In this document: in pieces, positions 21,684 to 36,584 of the stretch
How positions within the stretch are numbered: position 1 is the stretch's first letter
Layout of the letters: every line of letters starts with the position of its first letter
Made by a program: the position numbers and the translations under genes
NCBI GenBank assembly: GCA_016206155.1
Contig: JACQSC010000005.1
Span: forward strand, 1-38,417
Length of the DNA: 38,417 nucleotides
Reading direction: 5' to 3'
From: Candidatus Uhrbacteria bacterium
GTDB lineage: Bacteria > Patescibacteriota > Patescibacteriia > JACQRZ01
The notes under the pieces: model-generated
What the model was told of the DNA's origin: nothing
Databases searched by the model: none
Seen by the model: the letters and a program-made list of their open reading frames with translations, nothing else

Positions 21684-22503
21684 ATGAATACAAATAAAAA
21701 AAGGGTCATTTTTCCTAAAGGGGAGCAGCACCAGTTCCTTGAAAAAGCGCAGGCGCTACTACGCTATTCGAGAACCGAGATATCAAAAATACGGAAGTAT
21801 TGGTGACGAAGAATATCGAAAGAAGAAATGGTTTGAGTGGTGGGATAAGAAGGGAAGATTTCAATTATCTCAAAATCAGCCCCGACCCATGCAGTGTCCG
21901 CCTCGCTCCGAAGAACTCGCAGAATTTGTTGGTATTATGCTTGGAGACGGCGGAATGACGTCATTTCAAATTTCTATCACTCTTGGCTATAAAAGCGATC
22001 GGGAATATAGTGTATTTGTTTCGGCGTTACTCAAAAGGCTTTTCCTTGTTGCACCTTCAATATATGAAGGTGATCAATCAATTATTGATATAAGGATATC
22101 TCGAAAGGTACTCGTGAATTTTTGTGTTTCTCTTGGTCTTTGTATTGGCAATAAGATTCGAAACAAGGTAGATATTCCGCACTGGATTAAACAAAATAAA
22201 ATCTTTTTAACGGCGTGCGTGAGGGGTATGATGGATACGGATGGATGTATTTTCCAAGAGTGCCATGCCATTGGTGAAAAAAAGTATTGCTATCCCAGAA
22301 TAGCTTTGGTAAGCTACTCAAATACCTTGCGGCTATCAGTTTTTGAAGGGCTGAAAAAGTTGGGTTTTAGTCCAAAAGAACGCAATGGTAGGAGTATCAA
22401 CCTCGAGAATAAAGGAGAGATACAAAAGTATTTTTCTTTGGTTGGTACGCATAATCCAAAGCATCAAAAGCGTTTTGAGGAATTCATCTGGAGAGGTGCG
22501 TGA
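21684..22503 (+). pseudogene. LAGLIDADG homing endonuclease-like gene, frame broken near its start
   Basis: The frame from the ATG at 21684 (MNTNKKRVIFPKGEQHQFLEKAQ) gives a typical helix-turn-helix start of CPR LAGLIDADG-type proteins but ends at a TGA at 21804-21806. The homologous continuation, IREPRYQKYGSIGDEEYRKKKW, is in another frame, open from about 21739. That second frame (254 codons from a TTG) contains both LAGLIDADG-like motifs, LAEFVGIMLGDGG and CVRGMMDTDGCIF. The part that should join the two is missing, so an internal deletion with frameshift between about 21770 and 21780 is likely. The 3' end overlaps the tRNA-Ser gene by 14 nt. Probably inactive, unless the second frame is translated alone from the TTG. 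Confidence 0.75.
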
Positions 22504-22576
22504 GCGGTTGAAACGACCACTCTTGAAAAGTGGCAGACCTGCAAGGGTCTCGAGGGTTCGAATCCCTCCCTCTCCG
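22490..22576 (+). tRNA. tRNA-Ser (anticodon UGA)
   Basis: The acceptor stem GGAGAGG (22490-22496) pairs with CCTCTCC (22569-22575), with discriminator base G at 22576. The anticodon stem CCACT/AGTGG surrounds the loop CTTGAAA with anticodon TGA (22524-22526). A long variable arm and the T arm GAGGGTTCGAATCCCTC follow, as expected for class II tRNA-Ser. CCA is not encoded. The 87-nt gene overlaps the end of the homing endonuclease frame, and an 81-bp direct repeat begins at its last three bases. Confidence 0.95.
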
Positions 22577-22654
22577 AATTATTTATTACCACTATTCTAT
22601 GACGCAATCAACAATACACATCATCATAACCGGCGGCACTATTGATGCGGTTTG
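22574..22654 (+). repeat. 81-bp direct repeat, left copy
   Basis: Runs from the last three bases of tRNA-Ser into the first 19 codons of an asparaginase-like frame. It matches 26668-26748 with only two differences over 81 bp. The two copies bracket about 4.0 kb of accessory DNA, so they mark a duplication or insertion boundary. Confidence 0.9.
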
Positions 22655-29597: not shown

Positions 29598-31481
29598 ATG
29601 AACATTCTTATATTTTCTCTCCTTGGTTTGTACGCGATGTTTACCCTCGCGCTTGGTGTCGTTGTTGGTGCGTTTATTCTGTTGTGGCTGTCAAAAAAAT
29701 GGAAGCTCTCTCACGCGACATTCAAAACATCACTATTCATTATCCTCATTGTCTCCGTTGTTGGAGTGGTGTTTCTTGCGGGGAATGACGCTCTGGCGCT
29801 GCATACGACAGCGCGTATTGATGACGGATTTCCAGGCGTGCAGGACAGCGGCGCATTGGATTTGATTAGCCAGGAGGTAACGGCAACAACCGCCACGATT
29901 ACCTGGAAGACGTTTGAACCATCGCCGACATGGCTGCAGTACGGGATAACCATCGCGTTTGGCGGGGAATATAAAGATGAGAACGAAAAAAAAGAACATC
30001 GCGTTACATTACGTGATCTCGAGCCCGGAAAAACCTATCAGTACACGGTATGGGTGAAGGATTCCAAAGGCCTTCGACGGTATCATCAGCGGATGGAAGG
30101 CATGAAGATGATTAACTATTATAGCAGCCCTTCGTTCACGACTCTGACGCGTGCGCAGGAGGAAGAGGAAGCGCGCAAGCAGGCAGAAGCAGCAGCAAGC
30201 GGAAAGTCATTGCTCACATTCCGTTTTTATGGCGACGCGATTGAGCGAGCGCCTTTTTTTTATCCAATTTTTAAAGACACAACAACGTTTGATTTTTCCG
30301 CACCGCGCATAACATCAATGACGCTTCGCGGAAATTCATCGCAGGCCGAGCTTCTCTGGACAACGGAACGGGATATGTCAGAAAGCTACATCGGCTATGG
30401 GCCTGACACGTCGCATGGTTTTTGGAGACATAGCGGCTGTACCGAAAATTGTACTTCACACACAGCCATCCTTGATGGGCTTGTTCCCGGTCAAGAAATT
30501 CACTTTAAGATACGAATGCGGGGGCGATACAATGAGGAAAAAACATCGTCAGGGTATTCCGTGATTGAGACGCCGGACCTTTCCTTTGTGGTGCCGCTTT
30601 TGTCATCACAAACAGTGAATATTCCGTTGCGGCAATCGGATATCACCGCTCCGGCCATTACTGACATTCGTAGTGCGAAGGTGGCAGGGGAAAATCGCCG
30701 CGCATCGCTTTTTTTTGACATTCCCAAGCGCGGAGAAATTACGGTTACATCCGACGAGCCCGCGCAGGCGACCGTTGAACTTCTTCATATTAAAGGCGGA
30801 GCGTATAGCATAGGCGACGTTGTGAAAACGGAAACGATTTCGTCGTCGGGTTTTAATACCACAACAACACTTTCGTTTGAGCCGTTGCTTGACGCCGAGC
30901 GCGATTACGCGTATCAGGTTACTGTGCAGGATGCGGCAGGCAATAGGCACACATCGAGATATTTTGCATTGAACGTTCGTGGATCCATGCAGGAAACGTC
31001 TCAAATGATAGGCGCGCTTCCATCATTTTCACAATCAGCGCCGCAGACATCACAGTCCCAGATGGGAGTCACTACACAACAATCACCGACTGTTCTTGGC
31101 AAAAAACTTTTAGGCCGTATTCTTCTCCAGGTCCAGGGAAGCGGTGAAGCATGGTATGTCCATCCGAAAACAGCGCAGCGCCATTATCTTGGACGCCCGA
31201 GCGATGCGCTCCGGGTCATGCGTGAACAAGGAGTGGGGGTGAGTAATGCCGACCTCTCTCGTATCGCGCGCTCTGGAGATGCGAATAGCGGAGATGGCGC
31301 TTTTGCAAAAAAACAGGCGGGTCGTATTCTTCTTCAGGTTCAATCTCATGGCGAAGCGTGGTATGTGAACCCGCTTGATGCCAAGCGTTATTACCTCGGC
31401 CGTCCCTCAGACGCGCTTGCCATCATGCGGACGCTCGGGATTGGCATTAGCAATGCTGATTTAGCGGCCATTTCACTATGA
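29598..31481 (+). CDS. Surface protein with fibronectin-III-like and repeated C-terminal domains
   Basis: The 627-aa product has two N-terminal membrane segments (residues 1-25 and about 40-63). Two or three beta-rich fibronectin-III-like modules follow: ATTATITWKTFEPSPTWLQYG and LRDLEPGKTYQYTVWVKD; then SQAELLWTTERDMSESYIGYG and LVPGQEIHFKIRMRG; then a third domain after residue 350. After a Ser/Gln-rich linker come two C-terminal repeats of about 45 residues (GRILLQVQG.GEAWYV, then RYYLGRPSDALRVM and GISNADL), known from CPR surface proteins. Probably a cell-surface adhesin or wall protein. An alternative start at 29559 would add 13 residues. Confidence 0.7.
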   Translation: MNILIFSLLGLYAMFTLALGVVVGAFILLWLSKKWKLSHATFKTSLFIILIVSVVGVVFLAGNDALALHTTARIDDGFPGVQDSGALDLISQEVTATTATITWKTFEPSPTWLQYGITIAFGGEYKDENEKKEHRVTLRDLEPGKTYQYTVWVKDSKGLRRYHQRMEGMKMINYYSSPSFTTLTRAQEEEEARKQAEAAASGKSLLTFRFYGDAIERAPFFYPIFKDTTTFDFSAPRITSMTLRGNSSQAELLWTTERDMSESYIGYGPDTSHGFWRHSGCTENCTSHTAILDGLVPGQEIHFKIRMRGRYNEEKTSSGYSVIETPDLSFVVPLLSSQTVNIPLRQSDITAPAITDIRSAKVAGENRRASLFFDIPKRGEITVTSDEPAQATVELLHIKGGAYSIGDVVKTETISSSGFNTTTTLSFEPLLDAERDYAYQVTVQDAAGNRHTSRYFALNVRGSMQETSQMIGALPSFSQSAPQTSQSQMGVTTQQSPTVLGKKLLGRILLQVQGSGEAWYVHPKTAQRHYLGRPSDALRVMREQGVGVSNADLSRIARSGDANSGDGAFAKKQAGRILLQVQSHGEAWYVNPLDAKRYYLGRPSDALAIMRTLGIGISNADLAAISL

Positions 31482-32137
31482 TCAAAAAAATAATCGGCGG
31501 AATGTTCATCGTCTTTGAGGGAGGAGAGGGGAGCGGGAAAACCACGCAGGCCAAGATGCTCGGTGAATGGTTGACCGCGCGTGAGCACGATGTTTTATTG
31601 ACAAAACAGCCAGGCGGTGATGAAAGTGTATGCAAACAGATTCGTTCGCTGGTGCTTGACCCCCAGTACTTTGGCAAGATTTTTCCTCGTACGGAATTTC
31701 TGCTCTTTATGGCAGACAAGGCACAGCACCTGGATTCTGTTGTGCGTCCAGCACTTGCAGAAGGGAAGATCGTGATCTCTGATCGCTACATTGCGTCAAC
31801 GTTTGCCTATCAAGCAGTTGCGCGCACGAGCTGCACTCGTGAAGAGTTCGATTATGTATCGCGCTATGCAGTGCAGGGGCTCCAACCACATCTGACGATT
31901 TGGCTCGATGTCGATCCGGCGCTGGGTATGCAGCGCAATCGCGGGGTACCCTCACAACAACTGCGATTTGAAAAAGAGACTCTTGAATTTCACCAGCGCG
32001 TACGCGAAGGATATGAAGAATATCTCACCAAACATACCGACCCCACCCGCGTTCTCCGCGTCGACGCAAACCAGTCCGTTGAACAAAATCACACAGCGAT
32101 TGTCGCTGGGATAAAACATCTTTTGTCGTCAACGTGA
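31478..32137 (+). CDS. tmk: Thymidylate kinase
   Basis: Phosphorylates dTMP to dTDP. The 219-aa product has the P-loop FEGGEGSGKTTQ, the substrate motif DRYIASTFAYQ and a LID region RGVPSQQLRFEKETLEFHQRVREGY. The usual TREPGGT motif reads TKQPGGDE, so the arginine and last threonine differ; the effect is unclear. The start at 31478 overlaps the previous stop (ATGA); an internal ATG at 31502 gives the more usual MFIVFEGGEGSGK start and may be the true one. Confidence 0.9.
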   Translation: MIKKIIGGMFIVFEGGEGSGKTTQAKMLGEWLTAREHDVLLTKQPGGDESVCKQIRSLVLDPQYFGKIFPRTEFLLFMADKAQHLDSVVRPALAEGKIVISDRYIASTFAYQAVARTSCTREEFDYVSRYAVQGLQPHLTIWLDVDPALGMQRNRGVPSQQLRFEKETLEFHQRVREGYEEYLTKHTDPTRVLRVDANQSVEQNHTAIVAGIKHLLSST

Positions 32138-32155
32138 AAACAGTTAGAACGCTCT

Positions 32156-32719
32156 ATGCAAAAGCTGTATTGCTACGTCGACGAGTCAGGGCAGGATGAT
32201 CGATCTCAATATTTTACCGTTGTTGTCATCATCTGTTTTGGTGATCGGGATATTATCCGTCAGCAGCTTATTGATATCGAGCATATTACAAAGACATATG
32301 GTTTAAAGTGGCACAAAACAAAGCATGATCGTCGAATGCACTATCTTGCGGTGGCATGCAAAAGCGATGTCGGAGCAGTAACAACTTATTACGGCATCCA
32401 TAAAAAACCACTTCCTTATTTCTTCCCAATGAGCGATACTTTGGAGAGAGCAATAAAAAAAGCATGTACGGGGAAGTACTCGGCAACTGTTTATGTCGAT
32501 GGAATTGATAGAACAATAGCAAAGAAACTTACAAATATATTACGCTCACGAGGCGTTCAACTCAACTTGGTAAAAAGCAGAAGAGATGAAAGTGAGCCGA
32601 TTATTCGCCTTGCAGATATGTGGGCGGGCTGCATTCGAGGGATGCTTCTTGGCGGAAAAGAGAGTAAAGCTATTTTTGAACACGCAAAGGCAAAAGGTCA
32701 CCTGACGGATGTTAACTGA
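32156..32719 (+). CDS. DUF3800 protein, copy 1
   Basis: DUF3800 proteins are predicted to have an RNase H-like fold; function is not established. The 187-aa product starts MQKLYCYVDESGQD with D9 and E10, has WHK at about 52-54, VYVDGIDR with D115, SRRDESEPI with D144, and the conserved RLADMWAGCIRGM with D154. These acidic positions are the likely metal site. It lies 18 nt after tmk without its own visible promoter, and is followed by a terminator-like hairpin and a structured RNA. A paralogue with the same start is at 33964. Confidence 0.85.
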   Translation: MQKLYCYVDESGQDDRSQYFTVVVIICFGDRDIIRQQLIDIEHITKTYGLKWHKTKHDRRMHYLAVACKSDVGAVTTYYGIHKKPLPYFFPMSDTLERAIKKACTGKYSATVYVDGIDRTIAKKLTNILRSRGVQLNLVKSRRDESEPIIRLADMWAGCIRGMLLGGKESKAIFEHAKAKGHLTDVN

Positions 32720-32725
32720 GATCAT

Positions 32726-32751
32726 AAAAACCTCGTTGAAACGAGGTTTTT
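32726..32751 (+). terminator. Hairpin with T-run after DUF3800 copy 1
   Basis: AAAAACCTCGTT pairs with AACGAGGTTTTT around GA, 6 nt after the stop codon. Strong intrinsic terminator shape; the corresponding hairpin after copy 2 has another stem sequence. Confidence 0.85.
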
Positions 32752-32759
32752 ATGAAGTT

Positions 32760-32822
32760 CCTTGGCTAGTTTCTCTCATGTGAGAAACAATTCCCTGCCA
32801 TACGGCCAGACCTTCGCCAAGG
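32760..32822 (+). ncRNA. Structured RNA associated with DUF3800, copy 1
   Basis: Three paired elements form a three-way junction. P1 is CCTTGGC/GCCAAGG (32760-32766 with 32816-32822). P2 is GTTTCTC/GAGAAAC (32769-32775 with 32782-32788). P3 is CTGCC/GGCCAG (32795-32799 with 32804-32809). Copy 2 at 34534 has the same layout with a different but still paired P2. TTGATA and TGGCA follow both. Structured RNAs next to DUF3800 genes have been reported from comparative genomics (the DUF3800 RNA motifs); whether this is one of those or a new class cannot be said from here. Strand is not certain. Confidence 0.75.
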
Positions 32823-32879
32823 CTTGATAACCGTATTATGGCATGTTATGGTACACTTGTCAATATCAGTAGAACCGTA

Positions 32880-32990
32880 AAACAGACTGGCTGCCTAGGG
32901 CCCGATTCTCACCCCCAAAAATTTTGGGGGAGTAGCCTCACGCTTTGGTGAGGCGGGCACACTAGGTCCTTACACTCCAATCTGTTTACT
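32880..32990 (-). ncRNA. Candidate structured RNA on the minus strand
   Basis: A long closing stem, AAACAGACTGG with CCAATCTGTTT (32880-32890 and 32977-32987, one mismatch), encloses CCTAG/CTAGG (32894-32898, 32962-32966), GCCCG/CGGGC (32900-32904, 32954-32958) and two hairpins, CCCCCAAAAATTTTGGGGG (32912-32930) and GCCTCAC/GTGAGGC (32935-32941, 32948-32954). A minus-strand promoter predicts a start within a few bases of the closing stem, and TGTTTTA follows its far side. The layout recalls compact housekeeping RNAs, but I do not recognise SRP, 6S, RNase P or tmRNA signatures. Confidence 0.6.
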
Positions 32991-32997
32991 TAATCTT

Positions 32998-33025
32998 AGC
33001 ATAGCATGGATAAACCAATTGTCAA
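32998..33025 (-). promoter_or_regulatory. Minus-strand promoter for the structured RNA
   Basis: Read on the minus strand: TTGACA (33025-33020), a 16-nt spacer and TATGCT (33003-32998). The predicted transcription start near 32991 falls just before the closing stem of the RNA. The plus-strand AEC gene begins 10 nt from the -35 box. Confidence 0.65.
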
Positions 33026-33034
33026 GGTGAAGAA

Positions 33035-33958
33035 ATGATACACGTATTTCTTGCCATTGCACCACTGTTCCTCATTATCTTCGCAACCGCTGCGCTGCAG
33101 CGGTGGAAGCATATCGACAAGCATTGGTCGGAGGTGCTCAACGAATTCGCGCTCAAGATTGGTCTGCCGGTGCTGATTTTTTCCGCGCTTGCAAAATCGC
33201 CATTCGCGCTTGCCGATCATGCCGGTGTCATTTTTGTCAACTCGCTGTTCTGCGTGATTCTTTTTTTCTGCACCCTTGCTTTGTGCAGAATGTTCCGCTT
33301 GAGTGCGGAGATGACGCGTACGATTATTGCCGGTCTCATGTTTGGCAACATTGCGTATCTTGGCATTCCTATCCTGACGCAGATTTATGACGCATCAATT
33401 CTTCCGAGGGTCAGCGTTATTATCGCGACATGGTTTTTCTGGTTTTTTACGCTTGTCACCGGGTATGTTACGATGTCGCGCCAAAGAAAAGGAGATGGTG
33501 TGTTCGCGCGAACATGTCAAGCGCTTCTGGGAAATCCACTCCTGATTGCCGTTGCGCTTGGACTCTTGTTTGCGAGTTTTTCTCTTTCACTGCCATCGGT
33601 TGTCGTAACAGCGCTTGATATGGTTTCCGCGTCAGTCACGCCAACGGTCCTCATTGTCATCGGGCTTTTCATTGGAAAGTCTCCGCTGGGTTCATTCAAT
33701 GACTGGATCCCCGCATTTGCGCTTTCCGCACTGACCCTTCTGGCCCTGCCCGCCGGAATGTATTTCGGACTTCAGCTCTTTGGACTCTCGCCGCATACCT
33801 ACGCAATCTCAATTATTGAGATTGCGATGCCCTTTGCGATTACCCCATTTGCCCTTGCCGACGAGTATGGATTGAATAAAGCATGGATCTCCCGTTCCAT
33901 TGTCCTTTCCACAATTCTTTCGGTGCTCACACTCCCGTTCTGGATTTCGATTCTATAA
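33035..33958 (+). CDS. AEC family transporter (auxin efflux carrier-like)
   Basis: AEC proteins transport organic anions such as malate in bacteria and auxin in plants. The 307-aa product has about ten hydrophobic segments, starting MIHVFLAIAPLFLIIFATAAL, with the family pattern FALKIGLPVLIFSALA near residue 40, GLMFGNIAYLGIPI near 110 and a second half with TPTVLIVIGLFIG and MPFAITPFALADEYGL. Substrate is unknown. The DUF3800 copy 2 gene follows after 5 nt. Confidence 0.85.
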   Translation: MIHVFLAIAPLFLIIFATAALQRWKHIDKHWSEVLNEFALKIGLPVLIFSALAKSPFALADHAGVIFVNSLFCVILFFCTLALCRMFRLSAEMTRTIIAGLMFGNIAYLGIPILTQIYDASILPRVSVIIATWFFWFFTLVTGYVTMSRQRKGDGVFARTCQALLGNPLLIAVALGLLFASFSLSLPSVVVTALDMVSASVTPTVLIVIGLFIGKSPLGSFNDWIPAFALSALTLLALPAGMYFGLQLFGLSPHTYAISIIEIAMPFAITPFALADEYGLNKAWISRSIVLSTILSVLTLPFWISIL

Positions 33959-33963
33959 GTGAT

Positions 33964-34503
33964 ATGCAGAAATTGTATTGTTATGTCGATGAATCAGGAC
34001 AAGACCCATCGTCACGGTTTTTTGTTGTCGCGGTAATAGTTTCTGCCAGTGATCAGCAAATGATTCGGGAAGAATTGGAACAGCTAGAGCGAGTGTCTGG
34101 AACGGGGCATAAAAAATGGCACAAGGTACGACAGAAAAATAGAATTGCTTTCCTGGAGCGTGCATTGGGTGAAGGAATCGCACATGGTTTAGTGTATGTC
34201 GCTTGGTATAGGAAACCGGCATTATATTTTTTTACAATGCTCGACGCGATCGAAAAAGCAATTCGCACATCAGTACAAGCTGACTATCAGGCACGTATTT
34301 ATGTGGATGGTATCGATCAACAAAAGGCGCTTGAACTGACAAGCGCACTTCGTATCCGAGGAATATCTCTTCGATTGATTCAAGGTAGTCGAGACGAGAG
34401 CGAACCACTGATTCGTTTGGCGCTCCTCGAAAATAAGGAGTCATCTCGACTCCTTGATAATGCCAGGAAGAAGGATTATCTTAGAGTGATTTTTGAATCA
34501 TAA
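33964..34503 (+). CDS. DUF3800 protein, copy 2, lacking the C-terminal LAD motif
   Basis: The 179-aa product is a paralogue of 32156. It starts MQKLYCYVDESGQD and has KKWHK, IYVDGIDQ (D115) and SRDESEPLIRLA (D144). Where copy 1 continues DMWAGCIRGM, copy 2 has nothing and joins directly to LLENKES; 10 residues, including D154, are missing without a frameshift. The C-terminus also differs (RVIFES). If D154 is a metal ligand, copy 2 is catalytically impaired. It is placed 5 nt behind an unrelated gene, like copy 1, and is followed by the same hairpin-plus-RNA arrangement. Confidence 0.83.
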   Translation: MQKLYCYVDESGQDPSSRFFVVAVIVSASDQQMIREELEQLERVSGTGHKKWHKVRQKNRIAFLERALGEGIAHGLVYVAWYRKPALYFFTMLDAIEKAIRTSVQADYQARIYVDGIDQQKALELTSALRIRGISLRLIQGSRDESEPLIRLALLENKESSRLLDNARKKDYLRVIFES

Positions 34504-34533: not shown

Positions 34534-34596
34534 CCTTGGCTATTCTTCGTTGCCGAAGACCAATCTCTGCCAAAAAAGGGCAGGCCTTCACCAAGG
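34534..34596 (+). ncRNA. Structured RNA associated with DUF3800, copy 2
   Basis: P1 is CCTTGG/CCAAGG (34534-34539 with 34591-34596), P2 is TCTTCG/CGAAGA around TTGC (34544-34549 with 34554-34559) and P3 is CTGCC/GGCAG (34567-34571 with 34579-34583). Unpaired words shared with copy 1 include CTA after P1, CAAT between P2 and P3, and CCTTC before the 3' strand of P1, then TTGATA. It has the same length (63 nt) and a different P2 sequence, which supports selection on structure. Confidence 0.75.
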
Positions 34597-34658
34597 ATTG
34601 ATATAATCATATTGGCACGCTACAATTATTCTGTCAATAGCATGACCGTGGCCTTTTT

Positions 34659-34802
34659 ATGAAAACCTGCGGGCAGTGCAAACTGGAATTTCAGATTTTT
34701 GACGAGGATCGGGAATTCTACAAAAAGATCAACGTGCCGGAGCAGATATGGTGTCCGGAGTGCCGCACTATGCACCGCTGTTACGAACAAACGATCAGCT
34801 GA
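34659..34802 (+). pseudogene. Truncated zinc-ribbon protein
   Basis: A 47-codon frame, MKTCGQCKLEFQIFDEDREFYKKI, then VPEQIWCPECRTMHRCY. Two CxxC pairs form the zinc ribbon that opens a much longer protein type seen repeatedly in CPR genomes. The frame stops inside the tail of the converging minus-strand gene, so the 3' part is lost. It could also be a small zinc-ribbon protein in its own right. Confidence 0.55.
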
Positions 34803-36534
34803 TGTTCAAGAAATGTGGAATATTTTTGGGGTTGTATCCTTTTGCCATAAAGGGAAAGAGCGCAATGGTTTCGCGGTTTGGTCCGGCAAGGGTCCAGACA
34901 GGAATCAGGCGGCCGCTCAAGAGGCCTTCGGTCGCGGATTGACCGGGCCGATAGAGTTCAATTGCCCGTTCGCGAAGCGTGTTGATGAGTTTTTTTATAT
35001 GCTCCGGAATGCCGGCAACAATACTATCGAGAGATGAAAAGAATTGGTACTTGGACATAGTCATCCAATCATTTGTCGCTGACAGTGTTGACCAATCCGC
35101 GCTGCGCAGCTTGTGAACAAGCTCGGGGCTTGGCTGTTCATCGCCATTCTCAATGCGTTCGAAGAAGAAAACAAGTACAGGATTTCCAACATGTTCACGT
35201 CCATCTGCGCCATACAGCGCGCGTACGGCATTCTTCTCTGGCTCTGACATATCGCCTCGTGTTCGATTGTCTCGGATAATTCCTTCCTCGAAAATGATAA
35301 CTTCCGAGATTTTAGGGCTCCGTGGATCATCGTTAAACGCGCGGGCGGCCGCGTACGGGCCCTTCTCGCTTCGGGTAATGACAATAACACTTTCATCATG
35401 GACGCCATAGGGATAGGGTTTCTTTGAGTCATCATCATGATAGTTATGAAGGAACGCAATAAAAGTGTTTGTGAGGAGAATAAGCGCGCGTTCTTTGCGC
35501 TCTTCACTCTTTCCTTCTGATTTGAGTTCCGGAAACACAGCGGTAAGCTTTTTTTCAATAAGCGGGAGAGCGTCGTGAGACATGCCCTGCAGTTTTGTCC
35601 AGAGTCGAAGCGTGTCGTGAGCATACCGGCAAGCAAGATCCATATCAAAAAAATACGTTGAAAGAAGGGCGCGAATGTGCGGATCATCGAGCAGAAGCTG
35701 TGTGGAAATAATTTTTCCTTCGCTTGCAAGCTCATGAAGAAGCGGCTCAGTATAACCATTTTGTACTACCCGCGCGTCATTGATCACTTCATTTTTTTCA
35801 AGACCCATAAAAAGAAAACCTGAATGAGGATCAAACGAGGTATGGATTGGTATAACATATTTGCCCGGGTGATTGACAACACAGTATTCGGTCATTGCCC
35901 GGGCGATGCGCTTCTTTTTTAATACATCATCGCGGAGCCCATTGTCGGCGGGCGATACGCGGATTTTTTCTTGTACGCGTGATCGGGCTGCCGCGCAGCC
36001 ACTATGGCTATCAAGAATTTCAATGACAACATCTTGCGATGCAAACGCTCGATCAAGCATTTTTGCAAATTCCCCGCCAGATTGTACAAACAGGGAGTCC
36101 CCTGGTTTTTCACTTGGAAGGAAATCAATGTCATTATCTCCCGCTGGTGTGCGAAACGAACCCTCGTGAAGGCCGGCGAGTAATTTAAGGCTTACACGAA
36201 CATCAATGCAGATTGATCCTTTAGGAATACCGCGCGGATACAACTCTCGTTGCAGCGATTCAGCATTTTTGATGTCTTCTGATTGCATCTCTTGAAATCG
36301 CGCTTCGCGCGTCGCAAACCATTGTATGAGTTTATAATGCGTCATCGCGTATGCGCGTGGGTCCCGTTGTGCTTCGCGCAGGCGATCAAGATGAAGACAG
36401 GCATTGAGATAGTCATGAACGAGTTTTTCAAATGATTGCTCAACTTCCGGCAGTTCAAGATGTTCCAAGAGTTCTCGGTAAACATCTGACACACATGATG
36501 GCTGTGGGGTTGTATCCACTGTATTTTTATCCAT
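34795..36534 (-). CDS. Large protein with a beta-carbonic-anhydrase-like motif set
   Basis: The 579-aa soluble product has no family I recognise overall. Residues 107-190 carry the motif set of beta-carbonic anhydrases: C109-x-D111-x-R113 (SICIDVRVS), then RTPAG at 128-132 and HSGCAA with H177 and C180. In the true enzymes Cys, His and Cys bind zinc and the Asp-Arg pair is catalytic. The spacing is similar to the family. The remaining 390 residues are mostly helical with a C-terminal domain of unknown kind. Promoter on the minus strand: TTGACA (36584-36579), 17 nt, TTAAAT (36561-36556). Enzymatic activity is inference. Confidence 0.65.
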   Translation of the reverse strand: MDKNTVDTTPQPSCVSDVYRELLEHLELPEVEQSFEKLVHDYLNACLHLDRLREAQRDPRAYAMTHYKLIQWFATREARFQEMQSEDIKNAESLQRELYPRGIPKGSICIDVRVSLKLLAGLHEGSFRTPAGDNDIDFLPSEKPGDSLFVQSGGEFAKMLDRAFASQDVVIEILDSHSGCAAARSRVQEKIRVSPADNGLRDDVLKKKRIARAMTEYCVVNHPGKYVIPIHTSFDPHSGFLFMGLEKNEVINDARVVQNGYTEPLLHELASEGKIISTQLLLDDPHIRALLSTYFFDMDLACRYAHDTLRLWTKLQGMSHDALPLIEKKLTAVFPELKSEGKSEERKERALILLTNTFIAFLHNYHDDDSKKPYPYGVHDESVIVITRSEKGPYAAARAFNDDPRSPKISEVIIFEEGIIRDNRTRGDMSEPEKNAVRALYGADGREHVGNPVLVFFFERIENGDEQPSPELVHKLRSADWSTLSATNDWMTMSKYQFFSSLDSIVAGIPEHIKKLINTLRERAIELYRPGQSATEGLLSGRLIPVWTLAGPNRETIALFPFMAKGYNPKNIPHFLNIS

Positions 36535-36555
36535 ACATTTTTTTTAATTTCCTTC

Positions 36556-36584
36556 ATTTAACGCCATCTTTGCCGTTCTGTCAA
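36556..36584 (-). promoter_or_regulatory. Promoter for the carbonic-anhydrase-like gene
   Basis: Minus strand: TTGACA (36584-36579), 17-nt spacer, TTAAAT (36561-36556); the start codon follows about 20 nt later. The gene pair with the riboflavin kinase is divergent. Confidence 0.7.

What the first reader, a model, noticed from the sequence alone, without database searches (positions are those of the whole stretch)
34393..34440. DUF3800 copy 2 has lost the conserved LAD motif in frame
Alignment by eye shows the two paralogues match until RLA; copy 1 continues DMWAGCIRGM and copy 2 skips straight to LLENKES. The missing 30 nt remove a conserved aspartate that is probably part of the RNase H-like active site, yet the frame remains open and the rest of the gene and its RNA are kept. 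It may be a catalytically inactive partner, for example an RNA-binding regulator of copy 1.
Basis: partly seen in the sequence, partly recalled or inferred. Interest (0 to 1): 0.65.

Follow-up and report, generated by a model that had tools for sequence, protein, structure and literature searches.

The report
DUF3800 nuclease broken, partner RNA intact
One of two related nuclease genes in this small bacterial genome has lost ten amino acids carrying an invariant active-site-type aspartate, while the small structured RNA encoded beside it is intact, and relatives show the same RNA surviving next to broken or missing nucleases, which suggests the RNA has a role of its own.

Summary
The deletion is real in this assembly. 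DUF3800 copy 2 (33964-34503) matches relatives up to A153, lacks ten codons (D154-M163 of copy 1), then continues in frame to a stop with the same tail length as its nearest relative. D154, G158 and R161 are invariant in 25 of 25 aligned intact relatives. AlphaFold2 gives an RNase HII-like fold; in copy 2 the C-terminal helix shrinks to a stub. Loss of catalysis is therefore likely.

Nothing supports a regulator of copy 1. No other genome found pairs an intact copy with an in-frame D154 loss. The one other copy missing this region (G446) is frameshifted. Both flanks of copy 2 are deletion-prone.

Each copy carries a convergent 65-nt, three-helix RNA gene, strongly covarying and absent from Rfam. 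Of 20 such RNA loci, ten have a nuclease with its catalytic residues, five a broken one (copy 2 included), and five none nearby. RNAs of the last two groups keep 97% of base pairs. Copy 2's RNA scores second best in the family.

Best reading: copy 2 is a nuclease in decay whose RNA still works, possibly as an inhibitor of DUF3800 nucleases (inferred). Assembly error cannot be excluded without reads.

The parts
33964..34503 (+). DUF3800 copy 2, 179 aa, lacking ten residues of the C-terminal catalytic-type helix
   Evidence: ORF and translation; Pfam PF12686 34.7 bits, profile 1-138 of 149; alignment
34422..34423 (+). Junction of the 30-nt in-frame deletion (A153 | L154), equivalent to loss of copy 1 D154-M163
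   Evidence: Alignment with copy 1 and 22 further relatives; same tail length as nearest relative
34534..34598 (-). 65-nt three-helix RNA gene convergent with copy 2 (RNA 2)
   Evidence: Covariance model R1 82.7 bits; model R2, built without it, 81.1 bits
34500..34527 (.). Symmetric terminator-type hairpin shared by copy 2 (its stop codon overlaps) and RNA 2
   Evidence: Inverted repeat ATAAAACCCCGCTAAAACGGGGTTTTAT read in sequence
34609..34637 (-). Promoter-like site of RNA 2: TTGACA, 17 nt, CAATAT (weaker -10 than RNA 1)
   Evidence: Read in sequence; the -10 falls below the threshold of the consensus scan
32156..32719 (+). DUF3800 copy 1, 187 aa, all conserved acidic residues present (D9, E10, D115, D144, E145, D154)
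   Evidence: Pfam PF12686 38.1 bits; AlphaFold2 pLDDT 92.4; RNase HII-like by Foldseek, best E 1.1e-6
32615..32644 (+). The ten codons of copy 1 (DMWAGCIRGM) that have no counterpart in copy 2
   Evidence: Alignment
32760..32824 (-). RNA 1, convergent with copy 1
   Evidence: Model R1 68.2 bits
32835..32863 (-). Promoter-like site of RNA 1: TTGACA, 17 nt, CATAAT (11 of 12 matches)
32884..32983 (-). Third RNA, like Rfam DUF3800-III, with its own promoter-like site (33025-32998) and no cognate DUF3800 gene here
   Evidence: RF02962 42.6 bits (gathering 43.8), E 1.7e-7; in G034 the same RNA is convergent with a DUF3800 gene

Best explanation
The window holds two compact units, each a DUF3800 gene (RNase H-type nuclease fold) followed by a convergent gene for a 65-nt structured RNA. 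In copy 2 a 30-nt in-frame deletion took out the invariant D154 and half of the C-terminal helix. The protein can probably still fold in part, but most likely cannot cut. It is best read as a nuclease gene in early decay: the rest of the frame is not yet eroded. The RNA gene next to it is intact and probably still doing its job. The likeliest job, by inference only, is to bind and restrain DUF3800 nucleases (an antitoxin-like or guard RNA), which would explain why RNAs outlive nucleases at so many loci, in this window included. Shown: the deletion, its position on an invariant helix, the intact RNA, and the repeated survival of the RNA without an intact nuclease. Inferred: loss of activity, and the RNA's role.
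For: D154/G158/R161 invariant in 25 of 25 intact relatives and absent only in copy 2. The lost segment is in helix 148-164 of a confident RNase HII-like model; copy 2 keeps a 5-residue stub and confidence drops to 67 around residues 11-20, just after beta-1. Copy 2 is not accelerated on the tree (end branch 0.79 against a 0.96 path for copy 1 from the same node) and keeps D9, E10, D115, D144 and E145, so the loss is probably late. RNA 2 scores 81.1 bits in a model built without it, second best among the loci scanned with it. Other lesions with the RNA kept: L023 and L025 (N-terminus with D9/E10 gone), L026 = L074 (frameshift), L079 (C-terminal fragment only), and in the sister subfamily L010 (stop plus D to N) and L012 (split frames). 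RNA with no nuclease within the fetched flank: L069, whose genome G035 has no DUF3800 at all, L077, L078, L080, L081. These RNAs keep 96.9% of pairs with 12 of 18 pairs doubly changed, against 96.6% for RNAs beside intact genes. The region is deletion-prone: the gene after RNA 2 is a 47-aa remnant of a 566-aa gene in G008, and G008 in turn has lost most of the transporter gene.
Against: Loss of activity is not tested; D144 and E145 remain and could in principle serve as the fourth carboxylate, as an RNase HII alignment would place it. An in-frame lesion in an otherwise clean reading frame is also what a retained pseudoenzyme would look like. No toxicity, binding or transcription data exist. 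RNA pair counts on model-fitted alignments lean towards the structure, and some compensatory changes may predate loss of the nuclease. The set A10 includes the copy 1 RNA as one of 11 rows.
Confidence: 0.62

Rival explanations
1. Copy 2 is a maintained pseudoenzyme: it binds its RNA or copy 1 without cutting and regulates copy 1.
For: Frame open, conserved start and beta-strand motifs kept, ordinary branch length; RNA 2 intact.
Against: Only one such case known; the other loss of this region (L093, G446) is out of frame; the copies belong to different branches of the subfamily rather than being a duplicated pair; lesions of many kinds are common. No near orthologue of copy 2 exists to test for selection.
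Confidence: 0.17
2. The deletion is an assembly or sequencing artefact and the living copy 2 is intact.
For: The genome is a draft of 10 contigs and no reads are at hand; no second assembly of the species was found.
Against: An exact ten-codon loss with clean sequence on both sides is unusual for an error; there are no near-identical repeats around it to collapse, and copies 1 and 2 are too different (45%) to be mixed up.
Confidence: 0.09
3. Copy 2 is still an active nuclease, using D9, E10, D115 and D144/E145 in an RNase HII-like arrangement; D154 is structural.
For: The profile alignment with RNase HII puts the fourth catalytic Asp at D144; Foldseek still finds RNase HII for copy 2, best E 1.1e-6.
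Against: D144 is not conserved in all DUF3800s whereas D154 is; R151, D154, G158 and R161 share one helix face; the helix itself is shortened. A published structure prediction also speaks of a catalytic rearrangement in DUF3800 (PMC10910872).
Confidence: 0.12

Closest known systems
DUF3800 proteins with associated RNAs (Rfam DUF3800 RNA families, e.g. RF02961 DUF3800-II, RF02962 DUF3800-III)
   Same: DUF3800 gene with a small structured RNA beside it; here always convergent, each RNA with its own promoter-like site.
   Different: The RNA of copies 1 and 2 matches no DUF3800 family of Rfam 15 at E up to 1 (relatives); copy 2 lacks the invariant D154.
RNase HII / RNase H2 (PF01351)
   Same: Fold; DE at beta-1 and D at beta-4 line up.
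   Different: Only DUF3800 matches at the Pfam level; the conserved Asp of the last helix sits ten residues later; no evidence for action on RNA-DNA hybrids.
Type III toxin-antitoxin systems (ToxIN)
   Same: Ribonuclease-type protein paired with a structured RNA; a possible analogue of the logic (PMC5086642 and PMC8860590, titles and abstracts).
   Different: Different protein fold; single RNA unit, convergent with its own promoter, not tandem repeats upstream of the toxin; toxicity and neutralisation untested.
DUF3800 effectors of defence systems (PADLOC DUF3800_VII and RT-DUF3800_VII-A1; accessory DUF3800 in some V-A2 and VI-F CRISPR loci)
   Same: Same protein superfamily used as an accessory or effector nuclease.
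   Different: Only weak, partial matches (E about 0.001-0.03); no reverse transcriptase or CRISPR genes recognised around the copies.

Membership tests
DUF3800 (PF12686) | Match above the curated Pfam cut-off (21 bits) | tested here: met
   Copy 1 38.1, copy 2 34.7 bits
DUF3800 (PF12686) | Conserved N-terminal DE(S)G on beta-1 and D115-G116 on beta-4 | tested here: met
   Present in both copies
DUF3800 (PF12686) | Conserved C-terminal helix R-L-A-D-x-x-x-G-x-x-R | tested here: not met
   Met by copy 1 and the 24 other intact relatives; copy 2 lacks D, G and R. Copy 2 is a family member by descent, but not by this feature.
RNase H-type nuclease | RNase H fold | tested here: met
   Models of both copies match RNase HII, best E about 1e-6
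RNase H-type nuclease | Metal-dependent cleavage | not testable with these tools
   Needs purified protein
DUF3800-associated structured RNA (known Rfam families) | RNA 1 / RNA 2 reach the gathering score of an Rfam DUF3800 RNA family | tested here: not met
   No DUF3800 family at E up to 1 at these places
DUF3800-associated structured RNA (as a kind) | Covarying structure next to DUF3800 genes | tested here: met
   95.4% of cells paired, 12 of 18 pairs doubly changed, 0 of 500 shuffles as high; beside every R1-subfamily gene examined
Type III toxin-antitoxin | RNA antitoxin in tandem repeats upstream of and co-transcribed with the toxin | tested here: not met
   Single convergent RNA with its own promoter-like site
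Toxin-antitoxin logic in general | Protein toxic alone, neutralised by its RNA | not testable with these tools
   Only indirect: RNAs survive without nucleases

The most novel reading that the evidence does not exclude
The 65-nt RNA is an RNA inhibitor of DUF3800 nucleases, a new class of nuclease-RNA toxin-antitoxin or guard unit in Patescibacteria. Solitary RNAs and units with dead nucleases, such as copy 2, protect cells against the nucleases of other units.
Probability: 0.25. Interest if true: 0.78.

Novelty: new variant of a known kind. Interest (0 to 1): 0.45.

Why it matters
The function of DUF3800 proteins and of their RNAs is open. The pattern found here (nuclease lost or broken at ten of 20 loci, RNA structure kept) says which partner natural selection keeps. 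It makes a direct prediction: the RNA acts without its neighbour's catalysis, most simply as a restraint on the nuclease. Copy 2 supplies a natural inactive variant for binding experiments.

Tried and rejected
(1) Sister deletion in other genomes: none in frame; L093 in G446 lacks the same region but is frameshifted. (2) Selection on copy 2: leave-one-out departures (4 of 54 otherwise invariant columns, against 4 for L006 and 5 for L021) and branch length show no clear relaxation; no close orthologue, so dN/dS was not attempted. (3) Slippage between short repeats: the nearest relative has a 4-nt repeat exactly 30 nt apart at this place, others 0-3; suggestive only. (4) Collapsed repeat as cause: no direct repeats near the junction. 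(5) Phage or plasmid carriers: no relatives in IMG/VR, phage or plasmid collections. (6) Weak istR, rimP and RsmY Rfam matches near the terminators rejected: far below their gathering scores. (7) Solved relatives by sequence: none. (8) Active-site distances could not be measured, because coordinates of the models are not given out.

Full report
What is there. The window is contig C2 of a 914-kb draft genome; several of the nearest named relatives of its DUF3800 genes are Candidatus Uhrbacteria. Two DUF3800 genes lie on either side of a transporter gene: copy 1 at 32156-32719 and copy 2 at 33964-34503, both on the plus strand. A third, distant DUF3800 lies at C5:89375 and has a DUF3800-II-like RNA (36.2 bits, below the 43.2 gathering score) at its 3' end.

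The deletion. Copies 1 and 2 are 44-46% identical. They align without a gap problem up to R151-L152-A153. Copy 1 then has DMWAGCIRGM and copy 2 continues directly with LLENKES. The missing piece is exactly ten codons, and the tail after it has the same length (26 residues) as in the nearest relative, G038/L018. In 24 aligned relatives copy 2 alone lacks D154, G158 and R161; without copy 2 these positions are invariant in 25 of 25 sequences, including the DUF3800-II-linked subfamily.

What the lost piece does. AlphaFold2 models (copy 1 pLDDT 92.4, copy 2 88.8) show an RNase H-type fold, best matched by RNase HII/H2. D9 and E10 lie on beta-1, D115 at the end of beta-4, and D154 on the last long helix (148-164). 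In copy 2 this helix is a stub (148-152) and confidence falls at residues 11-20. R151, D154, G158 and R161 lie on one face of the helix. A profile alignment to RNase HII proteins of related genomes (E 0.0023, probability only 12.6%) pairs D9/E10, D115 and D144 with the four RNase HII carboxylates and puts D154 ten residues further on. D144 is replaced in some DUF3800s (for example Q in L003) while D154 never is in the intact set. This agrees with the published remark that DUF3800 has an RNase H fold with a catalytic rearrangement (PMC10910872). Loss of D154 and half of the helix therefore most likely ends catalysis, but this remains an inference.

The RNA. Downstream of both genes, on the opposite strand, is a 65-nt RNA: a 7-bp closing helix, a hairpin CUGCC...GGCAG and a variable hairpin, with conserved GAAGGC and AGAUUGG joins. 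A TTGACA-type promoter site precedes it, and a symmetric hairpin shared with the gene's 3' end follows it. In 12 sequences 95% of cells pair and 12 of 18 pairs show changes on both sides. No Rfam family matches it. A model built without RNA 2 gives RNA 2 81.1 bits, second only to the G038 RNA in that scan. The -10 of RNA 2 is weaker than that of RNA 1. In this genome only these two copies score above noise.

Nuclease against RNA across genomes. I counted 20 distinct loci with this RNA. Nine have a complete nuclease with all conserved acidic residues; G008 has the catalytic residues but a shifted C-terminal tail. Five have a broken nuclease: copy 2; L023 and L025 (N-terminus with D9/E10 missing); L026 = L074 (frameshift); and L079 (C-terminal fragment, near a contig end). 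Five have none in the fetched flank: L069 (G035, no DUF3800 in the whole genome), L077 and L081 (G654), L078 (G577) and L080 (G609, near a contig end). RNAs of the broken and absent groups are as well paired as those beside complete genes (96.9% and 96.6%; the first set includes the copy 1 RNA as one of 11). In the sister subfamily, L010, L012, L041, L043 and L093 are broken too. The nuclease is thus often lost and the RNA often kept. The window itself has another example: the DUF3800-III-like RNA at 32884-32983 has no cognate gene here, whereas in G034 the same RNA faces a DUF3800 gene.

Local history. In G008 the site of copy 2 (same flanks) holds a copy-1-type gene and RNA; homology between the copy 1 unit and the G008 unit runs from the start codon to just past the RNA promoter, 32155-32868, and stops there. 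The gene-RNA pair thus behaves as one unit of about 0.7 kb. The gene after RNA 2 is a 47-aa remnant of a 566-aa gene in G008, and the next 1.8 kb is 94.6% identical to G008 against 68-76% for most neighbouring blocks. The surroundings of copy 2 are thus deletion-prone and recently rearranged.

Reading. Copy 2 is most likely an inactivated nuclease in early decay (about 0.62). A maintained inactive regulator is possible (0.17) but has no positive support beyond an open frame. Residual activity through D144/E145 (0.12) and an assembly error (0.09) remain. The role of the RNA as an inhibitor of DUF3800 nucleases is the simplest account of why it outlives them, but there is no experimental evidence here.

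Noticed in passing
window 32884-32983 (-): DUF3800-III-like RNA (42.6 bits, just below the gathering score) with a TTGACA/TATGCT promoter-like site and no cognate DUF3800 gene; in G034 (L097) the same RNA is convergent with a DUF3800 gene.
   Followed up: partly
window 34659-34802 (+): A 47-aa remnant of a zinc-ribbon protein gene that is 566 aa in G008 (L095 5739-7439); the loss is about 1.55 kb, directly after RNA 2.
   Followed up: partly
window 34779-36584: Block 94.6% identical to G008 while most neighbouring blocks are 68-76%: a sign of recent exchange between the two lineages.
   Followed up: no
L077 and L080: The copy 1/2-type RNA is followed head to tail by an RNA like those of the sister DUF3800 subfamily; in L077 Rfam tRNA matches lie in the 240 nt upstream. 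Composite RNA genes without a nuclease.
   Followed up: no
L095 5001-5684 (G008): The DUF3800 frame of G008 appears shifted shortly before its expected stop and runs on through the terminator into the antisense of the RNA.
   Followed up: no
L019 and L047: Closely related DUF3800-RNA units in a record labelled Omnitrophica and in a genome of the window's own class: horizontal transfer or a mis-binned contig.
   Followed up: no
window 21739-22577 (+): An ORF with a weak LAGLIDADG match ends inside a tRNA-Ser (TGA) gene at 22489-22577; possible homing endonuclease gene inserted at a tRNA.
   Followed up: no
window 31478-34503: Both DUF3800 genes start within a few bases to about 20 bases after the stop of the upstream gene (thymidylate kinase; transporter), so they are probably translated by coupling.
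   Followed up: no
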